Of a DNA stretch of 64,000 nt, positions 10,561-42,236 are shown one piece after another. The stretch spans positions 1-64,000 of the forward strand of contig CAWUHX010000079.1 of the NCBI GenBank assembly GCA_963922205.1, written 5' to 3'. Position numbers and translations under genes: made by a program. Position 1 is the first letter of the stretch. Every line of letters starts with the position of its first letter. Origin of the DNA: Romanomermis culicivorax. Lineage: Eukaryota; Nematoda; Enoplea; Mermithida; Mermithidae. The notes beneath the pieces were generated by a model. The model did no database searches. It was not told the origin of the DNA and saw nothing but the letters and a program-made list of their open reading frames with translations.

Positions 10561-10619
10561 TTTTTAATATGTTTGAATTATTGGAAAAAAATTTTCCATT
10601 TGAATTACCATTTTATTAA

Positions 10620-19359: not shown

Positions 19360-19509
19360 TCGAATTTGACTAGCATGATTTGGGGAAATGGTTCCAGCAA
19401 AGAAAATGCCATGTTTCTGTGCAATGTGATCATCAGGAGTGAACTGAACAATAGGTACCTGTTTATTTTTCTATTCTTCTACAACTGGGACTGAAAATTC
19501 TGTTACACT

Positions 19510-20519
19510 TCAAGGTGGTAGTACTATTTGTTCATTTAGGTAGATACTTCCACACTTTTTCGATGGGTTGTACTGCACTCCAGAACAAGGAATTATTTCA
19601 TCACTTAGTCTGAAATAAGCTTTTTCCTTGTTGATGGCCCATTTCTTGAAACGAAACAAAAAAATTGAGCTGAGCAACAAGTCGGCTGGGCAGTTTTCTT
19701 GGACATAAGCCAACAAAGTTTCTGTGATGCAGCCAATTTGCAGGGTTATGTAAACTGATCCCAGAAGTGGGACACCACCATTGTTAGCAGTGATAGGCAC
19801 TACATTAGTTGGCTTGATGATAACATCATCCAGTTGATCAACAACTGATTTGTCCACTAATGTGTATGTAGCGCCACAACCTACCATAGCATTTGCTAGG
19901 ACTTGTTTATTTATCAAAACATGGATGTGTGGTGTTCTTTGATGAGTATTTGTGATGGTGTTAACATACTCCAACTTTGGGGCTGTGGGAGCAAACTGCT
20001 GTGGCACTAACAGGTAATGATGTGGAGCTTGACTGACTTTTCGGCTAACTAACTGGAAGAGTGCTTCTCCCAGGGTAGGAAGATCAGGTTGCCTGATTTG
20101 TGTTTGTGGTAGTGATATATGTCTGTTTTGCCTTGACAATTCGTAATCTGAGTTACAAACCTTGGGCTTACAGCAACCTTTTAGCCAATATGACAAGTAG
20201 ATGATTTCCACAATAAAAGCAATGATAACTGCTAAATTTATTAGAATCTGCAGTGGTCCTTTGAGCAAATTGTTTAGGCCTTGCATCAAGCCTTCATGAG
20301 TGCCAATGATGATGTGTTCTAATCCTTATCCAGCTCCTGTTAAGACATTTCCCAGGGCTTGACCACTTCCTGACAATGCTTCAAAAACACTGCTGGAATG
20401 TAGTGACATTTCTGAGGTGTAATTCACTATGTGTTTCACTGTTTGTTCCAACTGATGTGTTTTGTACATGTATTGCTTCAGAAATGACAGGCTCATTGAA
20501 CAGCAGCCAATTTATCATG
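19510..20519 (-). pseudogene. Glycoprotein tail joined in frame to a retropepsin-like domain
   Basis: From 20519 down, the first part carries a heptad-like stretch and then a ~22-residue hydrophobic segment (core LINLAVIIAFIVEII, about 20240-20185) followed by a Cys/Lys tail (KGCCKPK). This is a single-pass anchor like that of an envelope protein. The open frame 20289-19510 runs without a stop from this segment into an aspartic-protease-like region (about 19960-19650): an HIHVLINKQ strand, AMVGCGATYTLVD and PADLLLSS. The usual D(S/T)G triad reads GCG, so the protease could not work. Stops and a frameshift lie upstream of 20289. Anchor and protease sharing one frame is unusual; canonical retroviruses have env after pol. 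Confidence 0.7.
20516..20519. repeat. Left target duplication CATG of the inner LTR element
   Basis: CATG directly precedes the 5' LTR and recurs at 34254-34257 directly after the 3' LTR. Four- to six-bp duplications are typical of retroviral-type integrases. Confidence 0.85.
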
Positions 20520-21116
20520 TGTTGAGGATGTACTTACCATAGTAGTAATCCCACATCTATGCAAAACTGGTGGATCGACAAAGTTACGATTTGACCAAAA
20601 AGAGCAATGTTTATCATTCTCATACTTTGGTGTGTCATGGGCGAGTCATGTCCATTTCTTTATAATATTTCTTTTTACACCCAATAAAGGCAAGCGTCAA
20701 CAGCCGGACACACACTTATTTACATAATAATATTGTTATTATTATTTATCATTTTATTATTGTGTTATTTGCGCAATAAGCAGAAAGGGGAGTCGTCTTA
20801 CACGGGATCCAAAGCCAAGGTAAAGCCCCAGCTCTTTTGGATATTGTTGTAGTGAGTTCTCCTTATTTGTGTAAACCTTTAGGAGGCATCTGGGGAGACC
20901 CTGAGTGCCCTTCGATTGCAAGAGTTAGAGTTCCAGTTACTTATTAGTGACTGAAGGTTGTGTTTATTTCTGCTTAAGGACTGTTGCACTGTGTTTAGTT
21001 GATGGCTAATAAGAAGCTCCTTTGAGTGACCTACAGTAGTCAGTTGAATACAAGCCAATAGCACTTGAGTTATATTGCTGACATCTTTTGACCTAAGCAG
21101 AGAAGTAAACATAACA
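20520..21116 (+). repeat. 5' LTR
   Basis: It is a direct repeat of 33664-34253. It contains a TTTATAATATTTC TATA-like box, CCAATAAAGG (a poly-A signal form) near 20680 and a conserved 3' part starting near 20790 (GGGGAGTCGTCTTACACGGG). Confidence 0.93.
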
Positions 21117-21117
21117 A

Positions 21118-23097
21118 GTGGTGGCTTCTGACACTTGCAATATGGCAGAGGGCAGAGTCACTCGAGGTGTCACAAAACTTGAAGGTTTTTACAAAGACTT
21201 AGGACTCAAAATGTCCAAAAATGCTGAGGATTTAGCCCCTGGTGCGACTTTACCGAGGACTCCGCCTGGCATAAGGCATGATGAGGCAGATAAATCTTTC
21301 CCACTGCCGGTAGTATCTAATACTACGAGCAAGTGGAAAGGCTCTGACTCAAGTGCCATAAGCCAGAGGGCTGAGGTAAAATTGGACCCAATAAGCGTGC
21401 CCAGTTCTACAGCCCCTATAATGGCCAATAATAATATAAATAAAATGGCAATGGCAGAGGAACAATCAACTGCCAAGGGTAGAGGTGCTCAGATATTAGC
21501 GCCTATCGATAGAAGGCCGAAATTGGCCGAGGATCATATTGATCCATTTGATCAATTTAAAGAGGAACGTTTTCGACAACCTCGACAACAATTAGATATG
21601 TATCATCACGAATGCATCAACAAAAATTTTGATAATATTCTGGACAATTACCATCAGGATCCATTGGACGATCTATGATTCAAAATGAGTCAAAAGGACA
21701 ACAAAATCCGATGGTTAAACATCAAAATTGACAAAATGACGGACTCGATGATTGGAGTCCAAGGACAATTGGAAAGGTTCATCCTGGATCAGAAAGAAAC
21801 AGATATCTGAGTGAGTAGGACTACAGATAGACCATTGCAAACTGAGGATATGTGTAGAACTTTGCCAATGACGTCTGCAACCTGTATTGCCAATGACCAA
21901 AGGTTACGGCAGATGGAAGCAGATGAGTCAGAGCAAAAGTTCACAGTCAAATCTACTGTGAAATCAAAGGCTTCTACGGAAAAATGGGTAATTGAATCGC
22001 TTGCTGTTCAAGAACAAGCAAGTGATATAGTTGCTCAATTTTTCCAAGAGGCTGATGAGGAAGCAGGAGGTAGTCATAAGGAAAGCAAACATACTACATC
22101 GAAGCACAAACGATCCAAAAAGTCCACACGAGGAAATTCATCAGATTCTGATGACTCCTCAGTGGATGGATTGGAGCCTACTGTGTCAGATATAGTGAAG
22201 GCTGTAGAGTCAAAGCTACTCCTCGATGACATGACTGAAACACAGGTTCTCAGCTTCCTAAATGATCTAGAAGCAGAGTTTACCTCAGAAACTACTGATA
22301 AAATGAAGCTGGCTGCCTTACGAGCACTTTCTAAGGGTGTACCGAAAGCTACTGCCAAAAGATTCAAGAGTTACGAAAAAGCCCAAAGAAAGTTGCTCAA
22401 AGTGCAAGCTCCAGATTCAAATGTCAGTATGCAAACACGGGAGCTGATGAACATAAAGCAGGAGTTTGATGAACCTCCAGTGAAATTCCTCAAGAGAATT
22501 AGTGTGCTAGTAGATAGATTGTATCCTAATAAGACTGAAGAGTTCAGAGATCTCTTCATAATTGATATCTTTTTCTATAAAGCATCTGAAGAGTATTAGA
22601 TTGTGATAAATGGAGTGACAATGGGGGAAAGGCAAGCAGAAGTGGCTTATGTCGGTAGAAATAAATTTGGCAATGCCCCACAAAGGCAGTTTAAAAATAA
22701 AGCTATGCCAGAGCAAGCAAGGAGAGAGAAGCAAGCCCCGATCCTAGTGTCAGAAAAGAAGGATTCCGATACTTCTCTAGAGGAGAATAACTCACAGGGG
22801 ACTCAAATGGCTACTACTCCCCAAAAGGGAAAGGAGCATGAGGAACCTAGCAGTGATTCTGTTCTAGCAAAGTTATCACAGGAGATTGAGAAGTTGGCTC
22901 AATGTTATCAGGAAATAAGCCAAAAGACTGATGCTAAATTGAATGAAATTTCTGCCAAAGTTAATAAGGGCAAACCCCAAAAATCAGGCTGAAATGAGTT
23001 CAGGAAACCATATTGTCGATACCATAGAAATAATTCTCATGACACGTCCGCATGTAAAACCCTTCAATGGAAAAATGCACAAGGATGGGAGCAGTAG
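21118..23097 (+). pseudogene. Gag-like region of the inner LTR element
   Basis: One frame runs from 21118 to about 23097 with stops at 21676, 21808, 22597 and 22990. The middle part (about 21811-22599) is rich in charged residues, with a Ser/Lys stretch (KHKRSKKSTRGNSSDSDDSS) and then a helical segment with KSYEKAQRKLLKVQ and PPVKFLKRISVLVDRLYP, like the capsid C-terminal region of gypsy Gag. Just after the last stop comes YCRYHRNNSHDTSACK, a CCHC-like zinc knuckle with spacing C-x2-H-x4-H-x4-C, which would bind RNA. Role in particle assembly is inferred from position and family. The frame changes to that of pol in the overlap 22943-23097. Confidence 0.75.
21119..21136 (+). promoter_or_regulatory. 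Likely tRNA primer-binding site
   Basis: TGGTGGCTTCTGACAC begins two bases after the 5' LTR. A PBS starts with TGG because it pairs with the CCA end of a tRNA. I cannot name the tRNA from sequence alone. Confidence 0.55.
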
Positions 23098-23099
23098 AG

Positions 23100-24076
23100 G
23101 AGCTCATGCCATAGGTTATTATGGTGATACTATGGATTATGATTCTTATCAACAATCCATTGATTATCAGAATAGATTGCGGAATGAGCAACTCTATATG
23201 GCACCACAACTGCCAGCGCCTAGCCAACAGCTGATGATCACAGCTCCCCCTCAAGGTCAGGTTCAAATCAGTAGCCCTAGCCCAAGTGTTCAAGCGATTT
23301 CCGGTAGTCAACCATCCACGTCGAGTCAGACAGAGTTGGGATCTGTTAGAAGTGTTAATAGCATTGCCACTACAGGTCAAGGTGTTAGTGAGATGAAATG
23401 GCCTGGAGTATTAAAGTGTGCCATGATGAAGGAAGATTATTCAAAGGTTACAAAAGCGCATGGGATAATTCCAAATCAGGAGGAACGATTAAGGTTTTCT
23501 AAGTCTCCTTGAACTCTCCCATTTCACATTAATGTGACCATATGTACACCTAACACCAAGGCTTTAGTGGATACTGGTGTTCAGTGTTCAGTGATGTCTT
23601 CATGGTTTCTTAAGGAAGCTTTTGATGAAGAATATACCGGATATTCTGAGATACTAAAAGTCACTGTTGCTGATGGTGCCGTAGTACATGCACATGGTTA
23701 CATACAATTCAAAATGCATTGTGAATTTGGAGTTTTCTTGGTGAGGGCCATAATCATTCAAAATGTGGAGGAATATCTCATAATTGGAATGGATTTTTTA
23801 GCACATCTGGATGTTGGAGCGATGATAGATTTTGGTAAAGGTATCATGAAGCTTAGTGGAGTTGAGAAAGCTATAAGTGTTGTACCTAAAGATCATGCGA
23901 GTCATATACAAGTTATTGATTGTATAGGGGAAGCACCAATAGTACATTCAAGTCCTAGAGAGGATCAATACCCCAGAATATGCCAATTAAGTATAGTGGT
24001 TTCAGTGGTATCATGTACGAAAGTATACATACCAAACGGAACTTATGTGCTTATTAAGGCAAGATTATGGGAATGA
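23100..24076 (+). pseudogene. Protease region of the inner LTR element
   Basis: In frame 2 after a Pro/Gln/Ser-rich linker (23100-23512), the open stretch 23534-24076 has the retropepsin active site ALVDTGVQCSVMS (about 23560) and the second strand IIGMDFLAHLDVGAMIDF (about 23780). The catalytic DTG is intact. Stops at 23510 and 24074 separate it from its neighbours. It would cleave Gag and Pol in the particle. Confidence 0.85.
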
Positions 24077-24100
24077 TAGTCTAAAACAGATCCGAATTGT

Positions 24101-26017
24101 TTGGTCATAGATGGAAATAAAGATGAAAAGAAATTTAGAGTTGATAGTACACTGGTTGATGGTAAACGGGAAGACTTTGTTCTGATGATTTCAAATAATA
24201 CGGGTTCCCCATGCCAATTACAACCTATTCAGGTTGTAGGCTACTGTGACTCAATATTACAAGAAAATTCAGGAGTATCAGAAGTACAAAGTACAAGTTG
24301 TGGGATATTTAGTGTTGAAGATAATTTTAAAGCCACTCCCAGAATGTCTGTGCATGTTGCATTGGCATTTGGAGAAGCGCCATATAACATGATCTCCAAG
24401 GCTGATATGGATGAGGAATTAAAGGAAAAAGCTGTGGCAAATCTGTCTAAATACAGAGATGTTTTCAGCTTACCCAATGATCCCTTAACTACAACACCAT
24501 ATCTTACCTGCAAAATTGATACTGGTAATGCGATGCCAGTGGCAAAACATTATTACAGAGCTCCCATTAACCAAAGATCAGGGATTAGAGCTCAAGTCCA
24601 AGGCATGTTAGATAAAGGAGTTATTGAACCCAGCTGGTCACTGTGGGCTGCTCCACTTTTCCTAGTTGGGAATAAAGATGGTACCGTGAGACCAGTTGTG
24701 GACTTCAGAGGTATAAATGAAGTTACTAAGGACGATAGGTATCCTATACCTAGGATGAATGATTATTTGGATTGTCTAGGTAATGCAAAATTTTATACCA
24801 CTTTGGATCTAAAGTCTGGATATTGACTAGTCCCACTAGAGGAGAGTAGCAAGGAGAAAACTGCATTTATATGTCAGGAGGGCCTATATCAGTTTAAAGT
24901 TATGCCTTTCGGACTTTAAAATGCACCTGCAGAGTTTCAGAGAATGATGGAGAGAGTGTTGCATGGTCTAGTCTGGAGAGTCTGTTTGGTTTACATAGAT
25001 GACATCATTGTATTTTCCAAGACTTATGAGGAACATTTGGAGAATTTAGAATGGGTCTTGCAAGCTCTATGGAAAGCAAAGCTAACACTTAAACTGGAGA
25101 AGTGCGAATTTTTTCCAAAAAGTGTTCATTTTCTTGGACACTTACTGGACAAAAATGGAATCTCACCAGATCCGAAAAAAGTGAAGGCTATTATGGAATT
25201 CGTATTTCCCAATAGTGTTAAGCATATGCAACGATTTTTGGGGATACTGCAATGATGTAAGAAATTTATCCCAAACCTTGCAAATCTTGCAGAAGCGTTG
25301 TATAAGCTTACCGCTACGGGAAAGAAGAAGTTCCAAGCAACAGAGGAACATCGCCAAGTGTTTGAAGAACTGAAAAAAGCACTCACCTCAGTGCCATTTC
25401 TACGGTATCCTGTTTTTGATGGAGCTGCAGAGTTCATTCTCCAAACAGATGCCAGTGGAACTGCACTGGGAGCAGTACTTTATCAGAGGACTCAAGATGA
25501 CCAATGGGTAATAGCTTATAGCAGCCCAATCCTTAAGGAAGAGGAGAGGAAGTGGTGTACTACAGAGCGAGAATGCGTAGCGGTCGTCTATGGTCTTAAA
25601 GTTCACCGGCACTATTTGTTTGGACAAAAATTATTGATCAAAACTGATCATAAACCTCTTTTATCAATGAAAGTAAATACTCAAACCAAAGATAAATTGA
25701 AAAGATGGTATTCCATTATAAATCAATCTAATCATAGATTGGAGTATGTGCCTGGTAGACAAAATGCAATGGCTGATTTCCTCTCAAGGAAGGATGAACC
25801 CGAAGATGCTAAGGACAAGAACCCACCAAAATGGGAATATGTCTTCGAAATTCAATTTTGTAATTTCGGAGCTCAAACCAATGAAATTGAAAGCCAAGAA
25901 TTGGTACAACAATCTCAGAGGATAAGGGACAAAGAAATTGAAAGTAGAGACGAGGGAATTGTCCCCGATCAGACCAAGAAATTGACCGTCATCCAGGAAT
26001 TGACGGTAGAAAAATAG
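24101..26017 (+). pseudogene. Reverse transcriptase and RNase H of the inner LTR element
   Basis: One reading frame covers RT and RNase H with in-frame stops at 24823, 24916 and 25252. RT motifs in order: DKGVIEPSWSLWAAP, VRPVVDFRGINEVTKDD, FYTTLDLKSGY, MPFGL, the active site YIDDIIVFSK (about 24990) and FLGHLLDKNGISPDP. RNase H (25298-25790) has LQTDASGTALGAV, TERECVAVVYGLK and LIKTDHKPLL, then the linker LEYVPGRQNAMADFLSR. This is classic Ty3/gypsy pol. The three stops each hit otherwise conserved blocks, so they look like decay and not recoding. Confidence 0.93.
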
Positions 26018-26296
26018 AATATTGCACCAACTACCAAAGATACATTGCAGATCAGAGATGAAATGCAGAAGCTTACGGTAATTGATGCAGTCACAACTAG
26101 AAGACAAGCAAAACTTCAGGATCAGAGTGCAGGAAATCAAGAACCAGGTACATCTGTACCAATTGATCCTGAAAATATTGCTTGGCTTTTTCCAAATTGA
26201 GAAAAGGAATTTGAAGAGGTGAAAGAAGCAGAGAATGAAGGAAAGAAAGATAATGATAAGATCAATTATCCAATTGATCTAAAGGTTATCACTTAA

Positions 26297-27567
26297 TTGC
26301 AAAGAGAAGACACTAATCTTACCCCAATTTGGGAAAGATTAAAGGTCAAAAGCACTACGAAGTATCATAGTGGATTCTATGAGGATAACGGAGTTCTTTA
26401 TAGGGAAACTGAGGGACATGGCCATGATCAGATTGTGGTCCCGAATTCCCTCAGAGACAGCATTCTTCACCAATATCATGGAACCCTCATAATGACACAC
26501 CATGGGTTCAAAAGAACGCTGAGTGATGTCAAACAGCGGTTCTGGTGGCCTGGCATTGAAAAAGATGTCAGAAATTGTTTTGTCCTGTCTGCCAAGTGGC
26601 TACTCCCGGTAAAAGCTCCTTATCCCCATTGATACCCATTATACCTGAGGGTCCCTTTGATATAATGTCCATGGACATAGTAGGGATTGCACCCTTGAGG
26701 GAACGTTGCCCATATGTCATTGTCTTTCAGGATTATTTCACTGAATGGGTTGAAGCTATATTGATTCCTGATCAGATGGCTGAAACCATAGTGGATGCAT
26801 TCTTAGAGCATGTGATATTTAGGCACAGTACCCCAAGAAAACTTCTTAGTAATAATGGATCTGGATTGAATTCAGATCTTATGAAAGCAGTCTATAAACT
26901 GTTGGAGTGCAGAAAAATTTTCACAACGGCATACCACCCACAGGGTAATGGTATGGTTGAGAGATTTAACCAAACTCTAGTAAAGCAGCTGCGAAAGGTT
27001 GCAATTGAGGATAACAATAAATTGCCAAAGTACCTCAGGGCAGTGGTATTTGCATATAATGCCACACCCCACACAGCAACGAAATGCTCGCCATTTTCAC
27101 TGCTGGGGGGGCATGAAGCAAATTTTGGTATCAATTTCACTGCTGCCCTTAGAGTAGTTATGCCTAATGACTATGAGGCTTATAAGTATGTTTTGGCTAC
27201 CCATCTTACAAATTTGTATGAAAGTATCACCGAAAACATAAAAAAAGCCACTAAGGACAGCAAGAAATATTTTGATAATAAAATTAAAACTTCTGGTTTT
27301 AAAAATCAAGATTGGGTTCTGTTGAAAGTAGACAGACAGAAAAAACTGGGGTTACCTTGGCAAGGACCATATATCATCATCTATGATAAAAGATTGAAAG
27401 AAAATGTGCTCACAATAGGGCATTGGAATAACCCACTTAAAAAGCTGGTCGTATCGGCAAGTAGGCTAAAACACTTTCCATATGAAGGTACCGGATGGTC
27501 TCCACACGAAAAGTTTGCAGATATTCCGGGATACTCCAGTTCATCAGGTCATTATTTCTGTGTCTAA
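26297..27567 (+). pseudogene. Integrase of the inner LTR element
   Basis: The zinc finger reads HHGF...FWWPGIEKDV, then a one-base frame change at about 26577 leads to CPVCQ. The core has MSMDIVG (first Asp, about 26670), LLSNNGSGLNSD at about 26850 and HPQGNGMVERFNQTL (Glu). In the second motif the usual Asp is Asn (SNNGSG), so the DDE triad is incomplete. The C-terminal GPY/F module is present (PWQGPYIIIYDK). Stops at 26014-26296 interrupt the linker before it. It would insert the cDNA at the target and would account for the 4-bp duplication. Confidence 0.9.
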
Positions 27568-28720
27568 AAATTTTTAGCGGAAAATGCAATATACTTGTAT
27601 TTTTGTGAATAAAATTTTTATTTTTTGTGTTATTTAATCGATTTATATTTGTTTAATACTTTTTCTAAACTTGTGCAGCGAAAGGTCAAATTTTCAGATT
27701 AATATTGTTAATTTGTACACCCAATGCTGAAGTTTTTTGGTTACATTTGGGGAGGTTTACGACCAATTTTCATTCTCAATTTCAAAAGTCGTGTTTTCTC
27801 TGTGCTCCGTGTCGCACAAATCTTTTGGAAAAAAATTTTTTGTCCAGCCCAAGGACCCGAAAATTATTTTTTGGTAATTTCGTATATTGTATTGATATTG
27901 AAGTAACGATAAATGTTCTTTAACATTTTGTTTACTTCAGAAGATACAATGCGAAATAAAATTTTCAAAATTTTTATTTTTCGATGTCGAAACTAGGTGT
28001 TGCGCCTATCGCACGAAATTATTGTGCACACGCCGATCACATTAAGGCGGGCCAACTGCAAGGCCCCCAAAACAATCATTATTTTTTGACGGATGGTAAG
28101 TTTTTATTTAATTATTTCTTGGTATGTGGGATGAATTCGCCCATTTAGGTGTCTTAGGAATGATTTCTTCACACTCAATTTTCTGAATGGGTCAACCAAG
28201 GGGAAATTGAGTTGGAAGAAAAATTTCTAAGAATGTTAGGATAGGTGAAAAGAAAAAACCTAATGGATTTACGGTCCTAAAAAGCCAAAACCTAATGGTT
28301 TTTACCTTGGATCCGACTCTGAAGCATTTATTTTGGTTTTATTAAAGCCCCTGGTTTACTAAATTTATTTCTTGAATTAATCAAAAAACCTTAATTGGTT
28401 ATTTATTCATTACTTAATTTTGTTTTTTACAAAAGTATGCCATTGTGAGAGCCGCAACTGACCCGCAATTGCGGGCCCCAAAATTTGCGGCCCCAAAAAA
28501 ACCAGTCAAGTATGCCTACGGCTTTACTTTATGACTTTGACACCTAACCTCTCTAATTAATTCATTTCCCCACACTAAATCTTTTTCCTAATTTGGTGCC
28601 AGTCAAATTTGATTACTTTATTGGTCATGGTGGCCTAATGCCTTAACTTCTAATGGGTCAATGGGCAATTATTTTTTATTGTTAGACTATAGCATCAAGC
28701 GTCTGGTCGGGGTTGGGGAA
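27568..28720 (+). other. Non-coding spacer between pol and the third coding region
   Basis: No domain is recognisable; the small frames at 27705-27923 are AT-driven. A splice-donor-like ATGGTAAGT is at 28093-28101 and an acceptor-like TTGTTAG ends at 28685, 35 bp before the first ATG of the third region. Confidence 0.55.
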
Positions 28721-30420
28721 ATGGAACAATGGTTTGCCGGCGCAATGGGTTATTGGCCGCAATGACCAATGGAGCCGGAAGGGGTTCATGTTGACAACAT
28801 CGAGCCAATCCTGAAACGATTGGCCACAAGCCACTTTTGGGGGTTATGCATTGTCAGATTCGATGTGGAAAAGGTCAAGAAGACCGAGGTATGTGTCATA
28901 CCTTACAAGGTAGCAATTCAGAACCCGGAAGGGAAAGAGTTCGCTAGGCTGGTGTCATTTGTGCATATAGATGGTTCCAGCTTTGTTATCGACCTTATAA
29001 CATTGAAGCCACAGGAATGGGATCTTTTGATTTCATTCCTTTCATCGGTGGATTGTTTCTTGGTCGGTTTCAAGGTTGTGGACGATCTAGTCGCAATTTT
29101 GAATGTCTACGGATCCAGGTCAGGGACCTCAGCTCATGATAAGACAAAAATCATACAAGCCTGTATACTCCAAGGATTTGGAAAATACTGGGACTGTGAC
29201 ATTTGCCTCAGAATGATGAGGGGGCCCATGGCCAATCACGCTCATGATTTAGGTTTATGTCCTGAAAACCTTGGACTAAAAGGCCTTTTCACTTAATTTT
29301 ACTTGGCTGATGTCGGCAAATGCCAATGCAACTTTGGTGACAAAAAAGTTCGAGAAAAGTTCTTGGCTTCCAAGATTCAGGTAACTGAAATTGTGTATGC
29401 TGGCTTAGATGCCTATTACTCAATTGCCATATTTTTGGGGTTCTTTCACTACGGGTTTCGCGGCGAATTGACTGGGGTTACGGCAATGTACCCCTATGAT
29501 ATTTTGTCACCGGCCCAAGTGAAACCCTTGGCTTTCCGCTTTTATACCATCTATTCTCAAGACCTAACGGGGTTTGAGGATCGAAACTTTGTAGAAGAGA
29601 AAGACATCCTAAAAAGGCAGTTATTCAAGGTATACCACATGATGCGGCAAGAAGTAATGGCCAGGTGGGCTACACAATTTCAGAATGATCTACCAGCGTA
29701 TTTGTATCCTGCGGATATTAAAAATCCCGCTAAAGCTAAGGACCACACTTTACTGTCTGGGGTTTATCCCAAGGCGCTAAAAGCGAGTCCAAGCAAAAAG
29801 AAGGTAAACCAGTGGTAAGATTTAAGTGATCCGGAGGACATGGATACAATGGAGCAACAGGTCAATAAAACAAACGAGGTGATAAACCGACTGCATACAG
29901 AAATGTTGCAAGGAGTTTCATTTTTTAAATTGATGGATCCTGTAGATGTTGTATGGTATATCACGGCAGGTCTTGATATGAATAAAACCCTTGGACAGGA
30001 CTGGTCAAAGCAGCTGCAATCATTTAAACTCGGAACAGACTGCTACAAACCAGTGGAAATCGACATCAGTGTGGCTAAGTACGACAGAGACCATTGGATG
30101 GCGGACTTGAGGAATTATGAGCATGTCATGGACTCAACAAAGTTTTCTGCATTGGAAAAGGCATGCAACCTAATTCCTCTACCATTCTTTGTTTTCTGGC
30201 CTCATAGCTGTGCGGAGTACGATTACATACTGAGGGAATGATTAAATTATAATTTCCTCAAATCCTACTCGAAGGAGGATGCAGAGTTGATCAAAAAGAT
30301 GGCATGGAAGACCGATGATAGGGTTTTACAGAATTTCAGCATAGTGGCATCTTTACCGCCAACAGAACCCGAACATGCTGTAAAAGGCAAACGTGTTAGG
30401 ACCTGGCAAATAGGTTTGGC
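28721..30420 (+). pseudogene. Third coding region, N-terminal part: DEDDy 3'-5' exonuclease
   Basis: One frame runs from ATG 28721 to about 30420 with stops at 28763, 29294, 29816 and 30239. Three exonuclease motifs are in the right order and spacing: Exo I FDVE (Asp 28862, Glu 28868), Exo II FLVGFKVVDDLVAIL (Asp pair 29081-29086) and Exo III YAGLDAYYS (Tyr 29396, Asp 29408). SFVIDL sits between I and II. The Y-x3-D form of Exo III marks the DEDDy group (RNase D, WRN, MUT-7). The known activity of the family is 3'-to-5' removal of nucleotides from RNA or DNA. The rest (about 29430-30420) is unrecognised, with aromatic-rich stretches. All four acidic residues and the Tyr are kept although the frame has stops. 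A captured host exonuclease gene is one explanation. Confidence 0.75.
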
Positions 30421-32756
30421 TTTATGCCAATTCAGTTGGGCTTGTGTGACAAAATAGGCTCTCCAATTTCAACAGAAATAGCAAAGCACAATATAACCCA
30501 TAACAAGGATTATTGGGCCAACTGCTTTTTCTACATAACATTCTACTACGCTGAATTTGGAGCTAAAACCCTGTCGCTGCGATATGGCCTGGCACCAGAC
30601 ATGCCTACTCTTCAGACGGGTCAAATTAGATGTATACTGGCTGACTATCGGATGTATACATATGAATTTCCTGAAAAGTATATTCACCAGAGGCCTCTGC
30701 CGACGGAAGAACCTATGGTTACCTATACATATGGTAACGAAACCAAACAATCAGATTTCAGGACAAAATCCGATATACTTGACCCTGATGATGAACCCAC
30801 AGTTCGGTCAGGTCAAGTGGACGAGGACTTCAGGGAATTGAAGAGTGAGGATGAGGATAATTCCGCACTCCTGGGAGAGGAAAGCTGCAAAGAGGCTGAT
30901 GACAAAGACGCATTATTGTATATTTTGATCGCCGACCCCAAAGTAGCTTAATCTGTGATGACAGCAACTTTTGTCACGCAGCTGCAACCACAACCACAAG
31001 TTGTGACGCTGCTGCAGATGGAAATGTTGCCACCGCTGCCTGGCTTACCTATGCCGCAAGTGATAAAAACATCTATGGATGCAAGTCAGTACTTGTCCAG
31101 CATAGAAAGTCAAGCTCAGTTGGAAGAAATTCGGATTGCCCAGGACGAGCAGAACATGTATGACCAAGCTTATATTAGTCAATACATGGATGCCGAAGGT
31201 GCAGAAAAGAAGGAGGAAGAACAGACAGCAAGGACATCTAGCCATACTGTGGTGGAAACACCACAAGAGTTATCAGCCCGGCTGGCTGAAGAAGAAAAGG
31301 AAATTCAAGTATTAGCCTTGACCTGGGATACAGAAGGTGTTCCCAGATACTATACTGCTGAGGCTATAAAAAATATGAAACAAAAAGGCTTAAATGACAG
31401 GAAAATTTTCGTTAACTTGAAAAAGAAATGAAAAACAAAAGCCCGTCAAGAGAAGAAGAAGGTAGAAAAGGCAATTGCACAGCCTGCAAAGATTACGCAG
31501 TCGAAACCTGCCAAAACTTCTGCTCCAGTCTCAGCAACGGTATCCATGACCACCATAGCTTCAACTACTCCAATGTCGCAGACTGCCTCTACAGATATTT
31601 TATCTATGGCAAGGAGTCAGTCCACACAATTTCTGTCGCAAGCTACAGACACCTCTGCTTCCCGACAGCATCAGCTTAAGGTGCAGGGAGCTCCTAGCAA
31701 GCCACAAGTTGCAGGACAAAAAGTTCAAATCTTTACACCAGGGAAAATAAAGCCCTTAACTCTGGTTACTGTTGACACAAATCAACAAACACCAGAAATG
31801 ACGGTGGAGTGATTCTGGGATGTATTGTTGGATTTTTGGCAAGTTACCAAGGATAAAAGTAGAGCAAGAGGTCCAATTTTTTTTGCTACACTGGAATTGG
31901 CTAATTATTTCTGCGATGAGCAGTTTGAAGATCCGGAGATTGGGCTGATGGTCTATAAAGTGGCCAGAACTATATACAAACTGTATCAGCCACAGTTTGA
32001 TGTCCAAGGAGGATTTTTATAAGATTCCCGAAATATTTCAGAGCCACTATGGGATAGGATCATTCGTGAAATTGTTCTTGAATGGCTCACGGAATATCGA
32101 GCGAGTGTCGTATTTACAGTGGTCAGATATTCATGTTTGATGATATTTCTTAAGCTTGACTATGCCCCACTTACGGCTGAGCAGATTGGTAAACGATCAG
32201 TCTCAGCCAAAGTGTTTGCAAACGTCATTCTGTTACAGGAGTATCCAAGTGCCACTGCTTCAGATGTTTTTAAGACTGCCTATCGCTCAGTGATGTATAA
32301 TTACAGTCAGCAAGTGGCGGAGATGGATGTCAAAAGGTCAGGTAGCCCAAGTCATCCGACTACTGTTAAATTTAGCAAAGTTCAGAACAATGCAGGACAG
32401 ACCTTTCGAGCACCTGGACTCGCAAGCAGTCAAGGTGGTGGTCAAGGAGCCACAGTTGGTGTAACCAACCAGGTCTCCACTGGCCCCAGTACTGGCACTG
32501 GGCAAGCACCCAGAATGGTTCCGAAACAACAGCAACCTATGCAGCATCCACAGGCTGCCAGGGGAGCTTGTGGAGGATGGGGAAGGGGTGCCCAACCTGG
32601 CCAGTTTCATTTCAACAATCTAAACAGGGGCAGAGCTGGTTATGTTGGTGGCCGAGGTATATACCGAGGACAACACCCTCGTGGTGCATTCCAAGGTCGT
32701 GGAGGTCATCAACAAGGCTAGCAGCAAGGCGGTGGGCAACAACAACAATAATTTTA
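30421..32756 (+). pseudogene. Third coding region, C-terminal part: acidic, helical and RGG/Gln-rich
   Basis: After a frame change near 30420 the reading frame continues to about 32756, with stops at 30949, 31429, 31810, 32020 and 32719. In order: a segment with ITHNKDYWANCFFYITFYYAEFG; an Asp/Glu-rich tail; a Gln/Pro-rich segment; a coiled-coil-like charged segment (LAEEEKEIQVLALTWD); a Ser/Thr/Gln linker; a globular helical segment (about 31825-32320); and a Gly/Arg-rich end with GGWGRGAQPGQFHF, GGRGIYRGQHPRG and GRGGHQQG. Such RGG tails bind RNA. Together with the exonuclease part this would be one protein of roughly 1,340 residues. No envelope features (signal peptide, anchor) are seen. 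Confidence 0.6.
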
Positions 32757-33663
32757 GCTGCAAAAATCTTGGTCTAAAATCTTCCATTCTTGGTCAAATT
32801 TCATTTATTCAAAAAACATAAAAACACAAAAACATAATAAAATCACAAAAATCCAAAAACATTACAAAATACAAAAATACAAAAATATTATTTAAATTTT
32901 TGGTTGTGTTGTTGCTCTCAAAAATTTCGTTTTGGCCAAGCTCATTGCTTGAGTCCACATTTTTGGTTTAAATTATTTCACTTATTTTTGCATTTATTGT
33001 TGTTTTTCTCCTATTCGATTCTCATCATTTTGCCTCGTAAAATTTTCTTGTCAGTATTTTTGTGCCTTGCATATTTTATTTTCTTTTCTTGTCATTTGTG
33101 CCTCGTATTTTAAAAATTTTTGCTCAATATTTTTCGCCCTACTAGTTTTGTAATTACTTGTTCGTCATATAGTTTTTTAAAATTTTTTCGTACGAAAAAT
33201 CGATGGTGAACCAAATGGGCGATGGAGTAGACGAAAGTAACCGATTACTGCAGGGATTGGGATGCTGCTACCAAAGACAATCCACGTCACTCAATGGGAG
33301 GAGACAATCTATAGTGGAGGAAGGTACCTAGGAACCTCAAGGCATGCTGGTGATGCCAGGGGAAAGTCAAGCTGATGCAGAGTCATTGATCTGTCAGGTG
33401 CTGGATCAATGATCAATCGTCCCGCGGCATCTCAGTGGAGAGACCTGGGTAACCTTGTAAAAAGACTTGACGTTGGAGGTTGTCATGACTCATACACCCT
33501 TCGGGGTCAGGTCAAGACAATTATGACCCATACACCCTTCTAGGTCGGATCATAATTTTTTTATGAAGTTGGGATCCAGTAGTAGGTCATACTGTAAAAG
33601 GTAAAAGTCCTGCTCACAGTTTCCTTCTTCACCTCCCGTTGATCAGTTTCAAGGCATGAGGGA
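32757..33663 (+). other. 3' untranslated part of the inner LTR element
   Basis: AT-rich, no gene. A tract of repeated CAAAAACA-like sequence is at 32815-32890 and a T-rich tract at about 32960-33190. Two TGACTCATACACCC / TGACCCATACACCC phrases lie at about 33486-33533. The purine stretch AAGGCATGAGGGA just before the 3' LTR may be the polypurine tract but is weak. Confidence 0.5.
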
Positions 33664-34253
33664 TGTTGAGGATGTACTTATAGTAGTAGTAATCAATGCA
33701 AAATTGGTGAATTGACAAAGTCAGGATTCGACCAAAAAGAGGAATGTTTATCATTCTCATACTTTGCTGTGTCGTGGGCTAGTCACGTCCATTTCTTTAT
33801 AATATTTCTTTTTACGCCCAATAAAGGCAAGTGTCGACAGCCCCACACACACCTATTTACATAATAATATTGTTATTATTATTTATCATTTTATTATTGT
33901 GTTACTTGCGCAATAAGCAGAAACAGGAGTCCTCTTACACGGGATCCAAAGCCAAGGTAAAGCCCCAGCTCCTTTAGATATTGTTGTAGTGAGTTCTCCT
34001 TATTTGTGTAAACCTTTGGGAGGCATCTGGGAAGACCCTGAGTGCCCTTCGATTGCAAGAGTTAGAGTTCCAGTTACTTATTAGTGACTGAAGGTTGTGT
34101 TTATTTCTGCTTAAGGACTGTTGCACTGTGTTTTGTTGACGGCTAATAGGAAGCTCGTTTGAGTGACCTACAGTAGTCAGTTGAATACAAGCCAATAGCA
34201 CTAGAGTTATATTGCTGACATCTTTTGACCTAAGCAGAGAAGTAAACATAACA
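33664..34253 (+). repeat. 3' LTR
   Basis: It is a direct repeat of 20520-21116, with a short deletion near its start and scattered substitutions. It ends AAACATAACA and is followed by the CATG duplication at 34254-34257. Confidence 0.93.
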
Positions 34254-34257
34254 CATG

Positions 34258-35609
34258 GAAGATGGGCAGTGAATCGAAGTGAAAAACTGAGTGGTTTCCT
34301 TGCCACAGGACCTACAAAGGTACTTTACTGACATGCACTTTGTCAGTTTCACTTGCCCATGTTCCATTTTCTTTGAAATAGCTCACATGCTCATGGTCAC
34401 AATTGACAATTTGATCAAAATCTGTCAAATCAGAGCTGCCAGACATTACAAACATGAGCTTGTTTTCGAAAAGCATGGGTAAGTTTTTGTAACAGGTATC
34501 ATTGACTTTATAGCTTCAGTAAACATGTGAGACATTGACTTGTCTGCAGGGCCAGATGGTCAATGCTTCTCCTGTGAACTCAGCTACTAAATCAGTTCAT
34601 TGCAAGAAAGCACAAGCTCCCAGGGTAGCATCAAGCCTGAGCATATGCCACACAAGGTCAAGATGACGTTGGGCTTGTCTGCATAATTCGTCCCAAATAT
34701 TTTCAAAATTTTGCATTTCAAAATCGTGAATTTTTTGTTCAAGGTAATTGAGCTTAGCATTGATAGGATCACTGCCTGATAGATTGACTTTGATATTTTT
34801 GGTCAGTTTATTACTAAAACTTGCTGATTTAACATCTATCAGAATGCCTTGTTCAGTTACATAGGTGCCTTTTATTTCTGGACAATTTGGATTGCTAAAG
34901 ATTGTGCTATTTTTTATTGGGAATGCACCTTGTAGCTCATCTACTATCATATGATTGCTACTGATTTTGACTTTATAAATGTTTTTCAGCTCAAATGGAC
35001 AAACATTTTCAATGGCAGTTCCATCCCAAATGGCAACTCCATCATCCAAAATGCAGGTACCAGCATTGGCCTTGCAACCACCTAAGTCACCTAAGGTACT
35101 GATTAAAGTTTTTCCATCCCATGAAGCTATTTTACCTTCTTCAATGATTAGATTTTCAACCATGGTGTAGTGATCTGAGCAACACCAGCTATATTCGACA
35201 GTAAGTTTGTTACTAGTAGACTGCAGGCCAAGTGAAGTTTGATTTAGATCTTGTTGTTTGAAAGTTTTTGTTTCCCATGAAATTCTGCATTTGGCTGCAT
35301 TTCGAATGTTCAACTTGGGCCTGATCAAAAACAATACTTTTGCTCCAAAAAACTGGTTTGAGTACAAATTTTCCGAGTCCAAATACTGCATTTGTAGCTA
35401 AATGTATGTGCAGGAAAGCTGCGAGGCACATATACTTTTCCCAATGTTGTGATCAGAATATTTTGTGATTTTATTTTCGAGCATGAAACAAATTGTGGTA
35501 TGTCCAAAGAGTGACCACTTCGGGCAGAGCCACAGATTTGGTAGCTCTGACTGATGGGCATGCAACAACACGAAAATATAAACAAAAATAAAATTTCAAA
35601 AATGTTCAT
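34258..35609 (-). pseudogene. Envelope-like glycoprotein of the old retroelement (ectodomain)
   Basis: On the minus strand ATG 35609 starts a signal peptide (MNIFEILFLFIFSCCC, then a polar region beginning SQSYQICGS). A frame change near 35390 leads to the open stretch 35391-34597, a Cys-rich ectodomain with LGGCKANAGTC, DDGVAIWDG and NVCPFELK, N-glycosylation sites such as NQTS and NSTI, and a long helical end. Beyond the stop at 34597 the similarity-like reading continues to the insertion point at 34257. The membrane anchor is on the other side of the insert (20519-20160). This layout (signal peptide, Cys-rich ectodomain, helical stalk, single anchor) is that of a viral entry glycoprotein. 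I cannot assign it to a fusogen class. It lies after gag and before pol. Confidence 0.65.
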
Positions 35610-38344: not shown

Positions 38345-39254
38345 AGTGACACATCTTCACAAAAAGTATTCGGATGATCTGCACCTGTCTTGTCCCATTA
38401 GAGTCTCACAGAAACGAATTATGAGTATACAAAAAACGGAAGATAAGTAATTACAGAAATATTGAAAACAATGAGCACAGTACAGAATTATTCAACAGCT
38501 CAGACAGAATTAATGATGTGTAGGTCTGGAAAAAACGAACTGTCTGAAGTTGAAGTGCCTACAAAAAATAAATGCAAATTTACATGGAAAAATACCTACA
38601 GTAATCTACAGTACAAAATTTACTAACATATACAAACTTATAATTTTTCGACTCTTGGTCACAACTCTTTTCATTACAGTTTCCTCATATATTGAGATCG
38701 ACGACTTTATCATGTAAATCGGATGCATCTTAACGAATGTACATAGAAATAATGATAATCAGGAAAAAGTGTAGTGTCTGAAATGTGCTATATAAAATGA
38801 GGGATGGTTGACAAATGCACAATCTTAATCGCAAGTCGTAATTTTTAATAAAAAGTTTGTAATTCAGAATTTACTGTACTTTCTGTGAGGTCAATAGTAG
38901 GAAGGGACAAAGCGTTAGCCCTCTTTTGATTGACCGAAATTACCGCCCCCTCGTTGATCAGTCAAAATTTTTGAGATGTCCCCAGGCGTGAAAAAAAAAT
39001 TTTTTCGTTTTAAAATCCTCGATTTTTGGCTAAAAAATGCGCACAGACGCTTTACCGCACTGTTTTTGAGATTTTTCAAGCCTTCCGGTTTTTTTAGACA
39101 AGTTAATTCATTAAAATTGAAGAAAAAATTGAAATGTTCGACTTAAAAGCCTAATCTACAAGCATTGTTGAATAAATTTTCTAGCAAACTATCCAAGAGC
39201 ATAATTGACTTGAATTACACAAGAAATCAATGGTCAAGCTGGTGCACACTACCC
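38345..39254. other. No gene seen
   Basis: AT-rich sequence between the gag start of the old element and the foldback element. It should hold the upstream LTR of the old element, but I found no matching repeat on the other side (15.9-16.9 kb). Confidence 0.5.
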
Positions 39255-41165
39255 TATAGCGTTATAATGATGAGTGTATATACAGTATATTTGTCAGATT
39301 ATTGATTACTGTAGCAAAAAGATCAACTTGCTCATCAAATTTCAAAATAGCCACAAATACCTAAAAACGCGACAAATTGTGAGGGACCAGGCCACATGCC
39401 CCACCGGAGTTCAAGGGGTAAGGCGCCGCACGTATTCTTGCAAATTGCGCTGTTTATTGGAATCTTTTCAACAATTTGATTAAAATATTGACTATTAAAA
39501 TAAACGTTGAGTGCGACACATTGTGAAGGGCCAGGCCACATGCCCTGCGGGAGGTCAAAGGGTAAGGCGCCACACATATTCTTGCAAAATTTTTATTTTT
39601 TATATGTTCTTCTCTGTCAAGTTTTTTCATTTTTTGATTTATTTTTTTGCTTTTGTCTTTTTTGTCGTTTTAAATATGGTTTTTGTATGTTGTCAAGTTT
39701 TTTGTTTTTTTATTGAAAAATTATGGTTCAAGATGTCACAAAATCATGTAATTTTTGGGAAAACGCACGGCAAGCTGGCCATTGAACATTCTTCCACATA
39801 TTTTGAACGTAAAATTCGACGTTGATCCAGAGTTAAATCCGAAAATTGAAATATATTCGACCACTAGAAGAAAAATATTGAAATTAAAAAAAATAAAAAT
39901 AAAAAAATGAAAAAAAACTTCCAAACAGAAAACAAATACAAACGAAACGCAAGTGCAGCACAAAAACCATAAAATTCACAACAATACCCAATTTTTCCGG
40001 AAAAAAATTTCGGAAAACTAAAAAACGTAGAAATAAACTACAAAAAAGCGAAAAAACAGATTAAAAAATTACGAAAAAAACATTTTTTGACGTAAAATAA
40101 ACCACAAAAACAAATAAAATCCGAAAAACCGAAAATTCCATAATGAACTCTAAGATTGCAATCAAAAAAACAAAAAATCAACAAAAAAGAGAACAAAAAA
40201 ATAAATCACAAAAAACAAAAAAATTTAATGATAAACTATAATTTTCAAGCCGAAACACTAAAAAAACTTGACGAAAGAACAATAAAAAACACAAAAAAGA
40301 ATAAATAAGAAAAAATTAAAAAAAGCGAAAAGCAAGTAACACACCAAAAATGTCAGCATGAACTAAAATTTTTTATTGAAAAAACAAAAACACTTTGAAA
40401 AAATAAAAACAAAAGAAACAAAAAATGATCATAAACTATAATTTTCACACAAAACATGATAGAAGTTAACAAAAAACAACAAACTAGAAAAGAGGAAGAA
40501 AAGCAAACAAAAAGAACAAAAAATAAAATCTGCAATTTTTTCTAGGAAAAAAACATAGCAAATAAAAAACAAAAAAGCAAGTAAAACAAAAAAACAGAAA
40601 GTAAGTGAAGCACAAAAAACAAAAATGTCAGCATAGACTATCATTTTTTATTGAAAAAACGAAAACAGTTGAAAACACAAAAAGAGAAAAAAACAAAAAA
40701 TACGATAACTAAAAAATTAACTAAAAAAACACGAAAAAATAAGAAGAAAAAAACAAATATAAAAAACCAAAAAACAAGAAATTATTAGAAAAAAACATAT
40801 AAAAAATAAAAATTTTGCAAGAATATGTGCAGCGCCTTACCCCTTGAACTCCTGTGGAGCATGTGGCCTGGCCCCTCACAATGTGTTGCAGTTAACGCTC
40901 ATTTTAGTAGTCAATATTATAATCAAATTGTTGAAAAGATTCCAATAAACAGCACAATTTGCAAGAATATGTGCGGCGGCTCACTCCTTGACCTCCCACG
41001 GGTCGTGTGGTCGTGCCCAAGCCTCCCAAGGTGGTGTCCCTGCCCTTCGACGCATTTTTAACTTTTGTAGCTATTCTCAAATTCATGAGCAAGTTGATCT
41101 TTTTGCTACAGTAGTCAATGATCTGACAAATGTACTGTATATACACTTATCATCATAACGCTATA
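39255..41165. mobile_element. 1.9-kb foldback element with compound inverted arms
   Basis: The left arm (about 39255-39600) and right arm (about 40805-41165) are reverse complements of each other. They share TATAGCGTTAT at the tips, GTATATACAGTA, CTGTAGCAAAAAGATCAACTT and AATCTTTTCAACAATTTGAT. Each arm carries two copies of a ~70-bp GC-richer unit (GGCCACATGCCC, AAGGGGTAAGGCGCC, ATTCTTGCAA), four copies in all: about 39378, 39519, 40812 and 40960. The middle is T-rich on the left and A-rich on the right, so it is loosely palindromic too. TATA at both tips may include a TA-type target duplication. No transposase is encoded. Confidence 0.82.
39830..40812 (+). repeat. A-rich, nearly T-free core of the foldback element
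   Basis: About 980 bp of AAAACAAAAAA-type sequence with strong strand asymmetry. A few phrases such as TGTCAGCAT and TTTTTATTGAAAAAAC recur at about 40350 and 40625, so it grew partly by internal duplication of a ~275-bp piece. The open frames on the minus strand here are Phe/Leu-rich by-products. Confidence 0.8.
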
Positions 41166-41213
41166 AGCTGCAGTAACCCAAGTCCTCTATGATGACAAGC
41201 GAAAGCCCAAAGA

Positions 41214-41425
41214 CATACCTGTACTTGGGGGGGGGGGGGGTTGGCCCAACTTGGCCAACCCTGTACCCAAAATCATTTCCCTCCCACCCCCCCCAGTCTG
41301 GAAAAAATTAAAAAAATTTTCAAAAAAGTGTATGTTTTTGGGAAAAATTTCGACTTTTCCTACCCCCCCCCCAAAATTTCGGATTTACCTCCCCCCCCCA
41401 ACTGGCCGGAGGTCTTACAGGTATG
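41214..41425. mobile_element. Short hAT-type element (CATACCTGTA family), perfect 8-bp duplication
   Basis: It begins CATACCTGTA and ends TACAGGTATG, with flanking direct repeats CCCAAAGA at 41206-41213 and 41426-41433. The interior has the same G-run and C-run pattern as the 140-409 copy. The exact 8-bp duplication points to a hAT-type transposase acting in trans. Confidence 0.93.
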
Positions 41426-41945
41426 CCCAAAGAGGATGGTAATGTTTCCAACGCGAAGCGCCGGAAAATTTTTTGGGTATATTGACATTCTGGGACGCTG
41501 GAAAATCAATTTTCCGAACATTTATTTCAAGAATTAGATTCCAATTTTGTGTTCAAGAGTCGTAATTTCTAGAATTTTAATTGAAAATTTTTAAAATCTG
41601 TAATTTATTTGTAAACTCTCATGAACTTGGTCGAAAATATATGAGTAAGAAGAGTATAAATTTCCGAAAGATATTTCCATGAAGCTTTTGAATTGATTTT
41701 TTGTTAGCAAAGAAATAATCGCATCATAAAGCATAGAGACTTGACGTATTGATTTTTTTCAAAAGGAAAAAATGCGAATCTTCATTAAATATTATGATAA
41801 AATGTTGAAGATTGTCAATTAAAACATGAGATACTACGTCTAAGATGATGAAAACTATTATAGATTAAGTGATAAATGAAGGTAGACATCATAAAAGCCA
41901 CGCCTGAGCTACGTAATGAATAATGATGATTATTAAAGTTATAAC

Positions 41946-42236
41946 CGGCGCGAAGCGCCGGAAAATTTTGAGATTTGGACCTCCTGAAATGCACCAAAAT
42001 GCATCTTTTCAATATGAAAATTGAAAACCCCAAATTTTTCTTCCACATTTGTGGAAAGCAGGGTTTTTTTCCGCACAGTGCGGACTTTTTTTGGGCTGTG
42101 CGAAAAATTTTTGAGCATTTTCCGCACAGAACGGAAATTTTTTTGGGCGTTTCTACTGCTGGCATTGATGAAAAGGTGCATTTTGGTGCAATTTAGATGG
42201 TCAAAATCTCAAATTTTTCCGGCGCTCCGCGCCGGC
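41946..42236. repeat. 290-bp palindromic unit bounded by GGCGC hairpins
   Basis: The left end CCGGCGCGAAGCGCCGG is followed by AAAATTTTGAGATTTGGACC and GCACCAAAATGCA. The right end is their reverse complement (TGCATTTTGGTGCA, AAAATCTCAAATTTTTCC, CCGGCGCTCCGCGCCGG). The middle has CCGCACAGTGCGG, another hairpin. It looks like a small inverted-repeat element or the terminal portion of the dispersed family. Confidence 0.75.

What the first reader, a model, noticed from the sequence alone, without database searches (positions are those of the whole stretch)
28721..32756. LTR retrotransposon carrying a third coding region with a DEDDy exonuclease and RGG tail
The sequence shows FDVE, VVDD and YAGLDA in the order and spacing of RNase D/WRN/MUT-7-type exonucleases, downstream of integrase and inside the LTR pair of one element, with an RGG/Gln-rich C-terminus in the same coding region. 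In that position such elements usually have nothing or an envelope gene. MUT-7 and ERI-1 show that exonucleases act in nematode RNA silencing, so the protein might counter silencing, trim template RNA or help RNA packaging. The role is inference. The motifs survive despite stops, so younger copies should have an open frame.
Basis: partly seen in the sequence, partly recalled or inferred. Interest (0 to 1): 0.88.

Follow-up and report, generated by a model that had tools for sequence, protein, structure and literature searches.

The report
Nematode LTR retrotransposon with exonuclease gene
A jumping element in a mosquito-parasitic worm carries, besides its usual genes, a large third gene, apparently spliced, that looks like a nucleic-acid-trimming exonuclease and is kept by selection; such genes were so far described in rotifer elements, and what it does for the element is still unknown.

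Summary
The window matches Romanomermis culicivorax v2. The element is 20520-34253 (13.7 kb): LTRs 94% identical, 4-bp duplication, gypsy-like pol, ORF3 between integrase and 3' LTR. This copy is broken and has no Pfam hit. Elsewhere 23 of 150 scored copies have ORF3 frames of at least 1,325 aa without a stop; 116 of 150 scored integrase places have ORF3 downstream. Active-site residues are kept in 19-20 of 20 loci; dN/dS is 0.13-0.22; RGG/Gln tail and 3' LTR follow in 4 of 4 copies fetched. A sister subfamily (40% identical; 39 of 70 scored copies open at 1,396-1,398 aa) hits Pfam DNA_pol_A_exo1 at E 9e-4, below the curated cut-off; profile-profile comparison supports a DEDDy exonuclease. DEDDy ORF3s in LTR retrotransposons are known from bdelloid rotifers (PMC5408684), so this is a new variant of a known kind. 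Function (trimming RNA 3' ends in the element's RNP, or attacking silencing RNAs) is inferred.

The parts
20516..20519 (.). target-site duplication CATG, 5' side
   Evidence: read; the same four bases at 34254-34257
20520..21116 (+). 5' LTR (TGTT...AACA)
   Evidence: BLASTN to 33664-34253, 93.5% counting gaps; 34 differences in 590 aligned sites, K2P 0.060
21117..21135 (+). presumed primer-binding region directly after the LTR (tRNA partner not tested)
   Evidence: position only
21142..22992 (+). gag region, broken in this copy; holds a GTGAGT donor-like site at 21811, also present in 10 of 10 fetched subfamily I copies (no match in the one subfamily II stretch fetched)
   Evidence: no credible Pfam hit for the gag pieces
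23513..24076 (+). aspartyl protease
   Evidence: PF13975 E 3e-6
24080..25255 (+). reverse transcriptase (broken)
   Evidence: PF00078 E 1e-16 for 24920-25252; no hit for 24080-24823
25256..26017 (+). RNase H
   Evidence: PF17917 E 3e-29
26297..27567 (+). integrase (zinc-binding and core)
   Evidence: PF17921 E 1e-14, PF00665 E 1e-8
27984..28095 (+). ORF3 exon 1 with its own ATG, 37 codons
   Evidence: open and in frame in 16 of 19 loci that have the region; dN/dS 0.15 in 9 copies; counterpart in subfamily II
28096..28686 (+). GT-AG intron (predicted)
   Evidence: GT kept in 19 of 19 loci, AG in 18 of 19; same position and phase in 5 of 5 subfamily II copies; UniRef gene model P0001 uses the junction
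28687..32751 (+). ORF3 exon 2 (broken here; open in other copies)
28829..29470 (+). DEDDy-type exonuclease domain (approximate limits)
   Evidence: motifs at 28862, 28868, 29084, 29396 and 29408; subfamily II PF01612 E 9e-4; hhalign 86.0%
32560..32718 (+). RGG/Gln-rich tail
   Evidence: same tail in 4 of 4 copies L047-L050 and an RGG tail in subfamily II L052
33664..34253 (+). 3' LTR
34254..34257 (.). target-site duplication CATG, 3' side

Best explanation
A multi-copy Ty3/gypsy-like LTR retrotransposon family of R. culicivorax carries a third gene as a regular component. Shown by computation: it lies between integrase and 3' LTR, has an ATG exon and a conserved GT-AG intron before the long exon, is under purifying selection, has a DEDDy 3'-5' exonuclease-type domain with the catalytic residues retained, a long middle region without known relatives in Pfam, and an RGG/Gln-rich tail. 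Inferred: it is translated from a spliced, retrovirus-like subgenomic RNA while unspliced RNA serves as genome; the RGG tail holds the enzyme on the element's own RNA or RNP; and it trims 3' ends there (element RNA, nascent cDNA or RNAs paired to it) as an auxiliary replication function. My confidence is about 0.9 for identity and anatomy, 0.7 for expression by splicing, and 0.4 for acting as an RNP-bound 3' trimmer of element nucleic acid.
For: LTR, target duplication and pol. ORF3 as a regular component: 116 of 150 scored integrase places have an ORF3 place 0.9-3.5 kb downstream on the same strand (lower bound, both lists capped at 150), and 29 of the top 30 integrase loci, window included, show ORF3 exon 1 or the exonuclease start. 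Open copies: 23 of 150 scored at 1,325 aa or more, 39 of 70 scored in subfamily II at 1,396-1,398 aa. dN/dS 0.13-0.22 in frame versus 0.68-2.19 out of frame, 9 copies. Catalytic residues D 20/20, E 20/20, D 19/20, Y 19/20, D 20/20. Exonuclease identity: subfamily II is 40% identical over 660 aa and hits PF01612 as its only Pfam family; hhalign score 44.0 versus a shuffle maximum of 21.7 in 60. Intron conserved in both subfamilies. Tail plus 3' LTR in 4 of 4 copies.
Against: No curated profile recognises this subfamily directly; the subfamily II hits are below the Pfam gathering score as proteins (19.5 and 18.4 against 23.6 bits), and in the genome only one place that I could assign to subfamily II passes it, with its neighbours in frame (24.0 bits). 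In the combined hhalign alignment ExoI and ExoIII fall in register but ExoII does not. The AlphaFold model was of too low confidence (pLDDT 39) and its fold searches found no exonuclease. One UniRef copy (P0001) has FDVK in place of FDVE and lacks about 40 residues. One intron frame gave dN/dS 0.32 and one frame after integrase 0.54, so the measure is noisy. The 19 comparison loci were the best matches to the query piece. No RNA or activity data.
Confidence: 0.45

Rival explanations
1. ORF3 is an anti-silencing nuclease: it degrades or shortens the host's small RNAs, or the 3' ends of element RNA that the host RdRP copies, and so weakens RdRP/Dicer silencing of the element.
For: Catalytic residues and purifying selection. 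Clade I/II nematodes are reported to silence transposons by RdRP and Dicer small RNAs with DNA methylation, and the piRNA 2'-O-methyltransferase is reported as not conserved in Trichinella spiralis, so siRNA 3' ends may be open to a 3' exonuclease (PMC4323106, passages; the step to R. culicivorax is mine).
Against: No functional data. C. elegans MUT-7 promotes silencing rather than opposing it (recalled; PMC5408684 argues that a self-limiting element would not survive). Nothing in the sequence points to small RNAs as substrate.
Confidence: 0.2
2. The domain is a catalytically idle RNA-binding module, like Maelstrom or EXD1, that with the RGG tail helps package element RNA.
For: RGG tail. Inactive DEDD derivatives that bind RNA are known (PMC5408684). 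The subfamily gives no direct profile hit.
Against: The catalytic acids are kept in 19-20 of 20 loci and the same motifs stand in subfamily II; an idle domain would be expected to lose some.
Confidence: 0.2
3. ORF3 stands in for an envelope or other particle protein, with the exonuclease domain as a passenger.
For: It occupies the env position and is probably spliced like env; the part after the exonuclease has no known relatives in Pfam.
Against: No Pfam glycoprotein or envelope match in the pieces scanned. Transmembrane segments and signal peptides were not tested with a dedicated program.
Confidence: 0.1
4. The exonuclease reading is a chance likeness and ORF3 is some other conserved protein.
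For: No exonuclease hit for the window's own subfamily in Pfam, NCBIfam, PHROGs or PDB sequences; spacings between motifs are longer than in RNase D or WRN (recalled comparison).
Against: PF01612 is the only family found for subfamily II (E 9.1e-4 and 1.9e-3); hhalign aligns FDVE and YAGLDA in register with score 44.0 against 60 shuffles with mean 13.6, maximum 21.7.
Confidence: 0.05

Closest known systems
Bdelloid rotifer LTR retrotransposons with DEDDy ORF3 (Juno1/2, Vesta2/5; Rodriguez, Kenefick and Arkhipova 2017, PMC5408684, parts 1-3 of 5 of the text read)
   Same: RNase D-like DEDDy ORF3 downstream of pol; the authors say ORF3s of LTR elements are typically expressed from spliced messages; same open question on function; the domain also occurs in more than one retroelement lineage of one genome.
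   Different: Nematode, not rotifer. No dUTPase was found between protease and RT in this one broken copy. ORF3 frames of about 1,356-1,398 aa with an RGG/Gln tail, and an intron conserved in two subfamilies. Purifying selection is clear here, whereas that paper reports no significant departure from neutrality for intragenomic ORF3 variation (its sequenced clones were env-like and GDSL ORFs). Direct kinship of the exonucleases was not tested: no rotifer sequence was at hand.
Terminons (giant Athena/Penelope-like retroelements of rotifers) with DEDDy ORFs (PMC6431247, passages only)
   Same: DEDDy exonuclease as accessory ORF of a retroelement.
   Different: Penelope-like, endonuclease-deficient, up to 40 kb, telomeric.
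Cellular RNase D / WRN / MUT-7 / Rrp6 exonucleases (PF01612)
   Same: D-x-E, D and Y-x-x-x-D signature; PF01612 match in subfamily II.
   Different: Very diverged, larger spacing between motifs (recalled comparison), carried by a transposon.
Retroviral and gypsy env-type spliced third genes
   Same: Position after pol and apparent expression by splicing.
   Different: No envelope match found in Pfam; exonuclease domain instead.

Membership tests
Ty3/gypsy-like LTR retrotransposon | paired LTRs with TG...CA ends and a short target-site duplication | tested here: met
Ty3/gypsy-like LTR retrotransposon | pol order PR-RT-RNase H-IN | tested here: met
Ty3/gypsy-like LTR retrotransposon | tRNA primer-binding site and polypurine tract | not tested
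   sequence read only
Ty3/gypsy-like LTR retrotransposon | placement in the gypsy clade on an RT tree | not tested
   assignment rests on domain order and Pfam names
DEDDy 3'-5' exonuclease (PF01612) | four acidic residues plus Tyr in three motifs | tested here: met
   20 loci: acids 20, 20, 19 and 20, Tyr 19; motifs also in subfamily II; one UniRef copy has FDVK
DEDDy 3'-5' exonuclease (PF01612) | match to the curated profile by this subfamily | tested here: not met
DEDDy 3'-5' exonuclease (PF01612) | match to the curated profile by the sister subfamily | tested here: inconclusive
   E 9.1e-4 and 1.9e-3 but 19.5 and 18.4 bits against a cut-off of 23.6; one genome place over the cut-off with neighbours
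DEDDy 3'-5' exonuclease (PF01612) | profile-profile similarity beyond shuffled controls | tested here: met
DEDDy 3'-5' exonuclease (PF01612) | RNase H-like/DEDD fold | tested here: inconclusive
   model pLDDT 39
DEDDy 3'-5' exonuclease (PF01612) | metal-dependent 3'-5' exonuclease activity | not testable with these tools
   bench assay needed
LTR retrotransposons with DEDDy ORF3 (bdelloid type) | DEDDy ORF between IN and 3' LTR in many copies | tested here: met
LTR retrotransposons with DEDDy ORF3 (bdelloid type) | ORF3 expressed from a spliced message | tested here: inconclusive
   conserved ATG exon and GT-AG intron and a UniRef gene model; no RNA reads available
LTR retrotransposons with DEDDy ORF3 (bdelloid type) | dUTPase between PR and RT, as in Juno and Vesta | tested here: inconclusive
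   no dUTPase family in 23513-24073 or 24080-24823, but only this broken copy was scanned
LTR retrotransposons with DEDDy ORF3 (bdelloid type) | common descent of the exonuclease ORF with the rotifer ones | not tested
   no rotifer sequence at hand; protein searches found only R. culicivorax entries or nothing

The most novel reading that the evidence does not exclude
In a nematode lineage that silences transposons through RdRP- and Dicer-made siRNAs instead of piRNAs, at least two LTR retrotransposon lineages have armed themselves with a dedicated 3'-5' exonuclease - here spliced and RGG-tethered - that removes the 3' ends the host needs (siRNA ends or RdRP templates): a transposon-encoded silencing suppressor maintained by selection.
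Probability: 0.2. Interest if true: 0.85.

Novelty: new variant of a known kind. Interest (0 to 1): 0.55.

Why it matters
It extends DEDDy ORF3s in LTR retrotransposons from rotifers to a second animal phylum and adds clear purifying selection on the gene and a conserved intron. The genome has many open copies and, it seems, at least two LTR-type lineages with such an ORF, so whether a transposon-borne exonuclease serves replication or counters small-RNA silencing becomes directly testable.

Tried and rejected
Rejected: a one-off insertion into a single element, or a host gene captured by this copy alone; chance motifs.

Papers: searches are search listings. Read: PMC5408684 parts 1-3 of 5; passages of PMC6338049, PMC6431247, PMC10879605 and PMC4323106. 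No nematode case was seen in these listings, which cover open-licence papers only.
Full report
Source. The window is contig 79, bases 1-64000, of a 359,112,060-base, 595-contig assembly. These numbers match R. culicivorax v2, 359.1 Mb in 595 scaffolds (PMC10879605, passages), and both protein hits to the piece 28766-29293 are R. culicivorax UniRef entries (two more with the next piece).

The element. BLASTN finds one direct repeat pair, 20520-21116 and 33664-34253: 34 differences in 590 aligned sites, K2P 0.060. Both begin TGTT and end AACA and are flanked by CATG. [quoted passage not shown] The copy is broken.

ORF3 in the window. After integrase (ends 27567) comes about 0.4 kb without a clear frame, then the ORF3 exons. 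The long exon runs from 28687 to about 32751, with nine premature stops and a frame change near 30.4 kb. No piece hits an exonuclease family in Pfam, and the first piece none in PDB sequences; the exonuclease stretch read with X at its stop finds none either.

Other copies. One search scored 150 of 2,575 candidates for the 176-aa piece, the window among them, all with E below 1e-78. Of the 150, 23 have an open frame of 1,325 aa or more and no stop inside the match. One search scored 150 of 3,137 candidates for the integrase C-terminus. Cross-matching the two lists, 116 of 150 integrase places have an ORF3 place 0.9-3.5 kb downstream on the same strand, and 116 of 150 ORF3 places have integrase upstream. 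Both lists are capped, so these are lower bounds. Of the 30 best integrase loci (the window among them), 29 show ORF3 exon 1 or the exonuclease start. L054 shows neither. In L064, L066 and L072 only exon 1 was seen: for L066 the ORF3 list has a place 2.7 kb further on, L072 lies near its contig's end, and L064 is unexplained. In four copies fetched at the 3' side (L047-L050) the RGG/Gln tail is in frame and the 3' LTR follows, 4 of 4.

Selection. Twenty loci (the window and its 19 best matches, hence biased to near relatives) were aligned; 19 of 20 have the integrase end upstream, L003 does not. Among nine copies open to the end of their locus, dN/dS was 0.15 for exon 1, 0.22 for 28691-29293, 0.13 for 29297-29815, 0.13 for 29819-30238 and 0.31 for the integrase C-terminus. 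Shifted frames of the ORF3 stretches gave 0.68 to 2.19. Intron frames gave 0.88, 0.32 and 0.97, and the stretch after integrase 0.80, 1.24 and 0.54; the 0.32 is unexplained and shows the noise of the measure. With 18 copies the in-frame values are 0.19, 0.22, 0.17, 0.13 and 0.30. Catalytic residues in the 20 loci: ExoI D 20/20, E 20/20; ExoII D 19/20 (N in L021); ExoIII Y 19/20 (C in L003), D 20/20. A UniRef copy, P0001, has FDVK in place of FDVE.

Exonuclease identity. PF01612 was searched in the genome: 116 of 119 scored places at E 1 or better. Two repeat families stand out. One has ORFs of about 1,396 aa whose first 600-odd residues are 40-41% identical to our ORF3 (660 aa, E printed as 0.0; 592 aa, E 4e-168): a sister subfamily. 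Two of its proteins hit PF01612 alone, E 9.1e-4 and 1.9e-3, below the curated score. It is numerous and little diverged: 70 of 3,688 candidates scored, the other 69 at 95-98% identity to the query copy, 39 of 70 open at 1,396-1,398 aa without a stop in the match. In the one copy looked at (C9) integrase (67%) and RNase H (73%) lie upstream and an RGG tail is present; its LTR was not identified. The other family, about 609 aa, hits PF01612 at E 1.4e-10 and 1.7e-13. Profile-profile comparison of the ORF3 exonuclease domain (12 natural copies) with a combined DEDDy set (8 rows of the 609-aa family, 5 bacterial) gave probability 86.0%, score 44.0, against 60 column shuffles with mean 13.6, s.d. 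2.3, maximum 21.7. There D-x-E and Y-A-x-x-D-A align in register, ExoII not; against the 609-aa family alone ExoI and ExoII align in register, at a low probability of 23%. So the DEDDy assignment is well supported but rests on relatives, not on a direct curated hit.

Splicing. P0001 maps to three places in the window's element: gag (21736-21807), 27996-28094, and 28687 onward. The middle piece belongs to an exon that begins with a conserved ATG (27984) and is open and in frame in 16 of 19 loci (L007 and L020 shifted, L008 with a stop). It ends at G|GTAAG: GT in 19 of 19 loci, GTAAG in 18. The next exon follows TTTTTAG-like sequence: AG in 18 of 19, not in L014. In subfamily II the same exon (27 residues 52-59% identical), donor GGTAAGC and acceptor TTTTTTAG|AC occur in 5 of 5 copies with an intron of about 640 bases, in the same codon phase. 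A sense-strand intron kept for that long in a retroelement implies that unspliced RNA is what is reverse-transcribed and that ORF3 is made from a spliced message; this is inference. Whether a leader exon from gag is used, as P0001 suggests, is open.

A second lineage. In the 609-aa family the ORF directly upstream (L030:1-900) resembles the window's integrase, 28.8% over 212 aa, E 7e-18, although Pfam finds no integrase there. Three loci (L029, L030, L032) were compared. So at least two LTR-type lineages of this genome seem to carry a DEDDy ORF after integrase, as described for rotifers; LTRs of the second were not looked for.

Prior work. Rodriguez et al. 2017 (PMC5408684) describe this kind of ORF3 in bdelloid Juno and Vesta elements, propose RNA 3'-end processing, consider a mut-7-like role, and report no significant departure from neutrality within genomes. 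My searches listed no nematode case; they cover open-licence papers only.

Mechanism. Conserved catalytic residues plus an RGG tail fit an enzyme that stays on RNA. I think trimming of 3' ends in the element's RNP is most likely. The anti-silencing reading is attractive in this host: clade I nematodes are reported to lack PIWI/piRNAs and to use RdRP, Dicer and DNA methylation, shown mainly in Trichinella (PMC4323106). There is no direct evidence for either.

Noticed in passing
L022-L041 (e.g. L030:1147-2973): A second repeat family with a roughly 609-aa DEDDy exonuclease ORF (PF01612 E 1e-10) directly downstream of an integrase-like ORF.
   Followed up: partly
L003:818-1441: A copy in which a 5' LTR and the first bases after it are joined directly to ORF3 (window 28706 on), gag-pol, exon 1 and intron missing: an internally deleted LTR-ORF3 element, and the closest relative of the window piece (90%).
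   Followed up: partly
window 27568-27983: About 0.4 kb between integrase and ORF3 exon 1 with no clear frame; mean pairwise identity 0.89 against 0.95 in the long exon.
   Followed up: no
window 28111-28670: One frame of the ORF3 intron shows dN/dS of 0.32-0.38; unexplained, possibly noise.
   Followed up: no
G000 integrase places: Many copies show a single open frame of about 2,233 aa through the integrase, so gag and pol may be one frame without a frameshift.
   Followed up: no
window 16939-20325, minus strand: Another broken retroelement on the other strand (weak protease match; RT-, RNase H- and integrase-like pieces by eye) lying just upstream of the 5' LTR; its protease piece is preceded by a hydrophobic segment.
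   Followed up: no
window 34600-35397, minus strand: A 266-aa cysteine-containing ORF just outside the 3' LTR with no Pfam match; by eye it might be part of a viral-type surface protein, untested.
   Followed up: no
window 39147-43619: Several inverted repeats with 80-92% complementary arms.
   Followed up: no
window 8152-13593: Several tandem or near-tandem direct repeats of about 90-540 bases, 82-93% identical.
   Followed up: no
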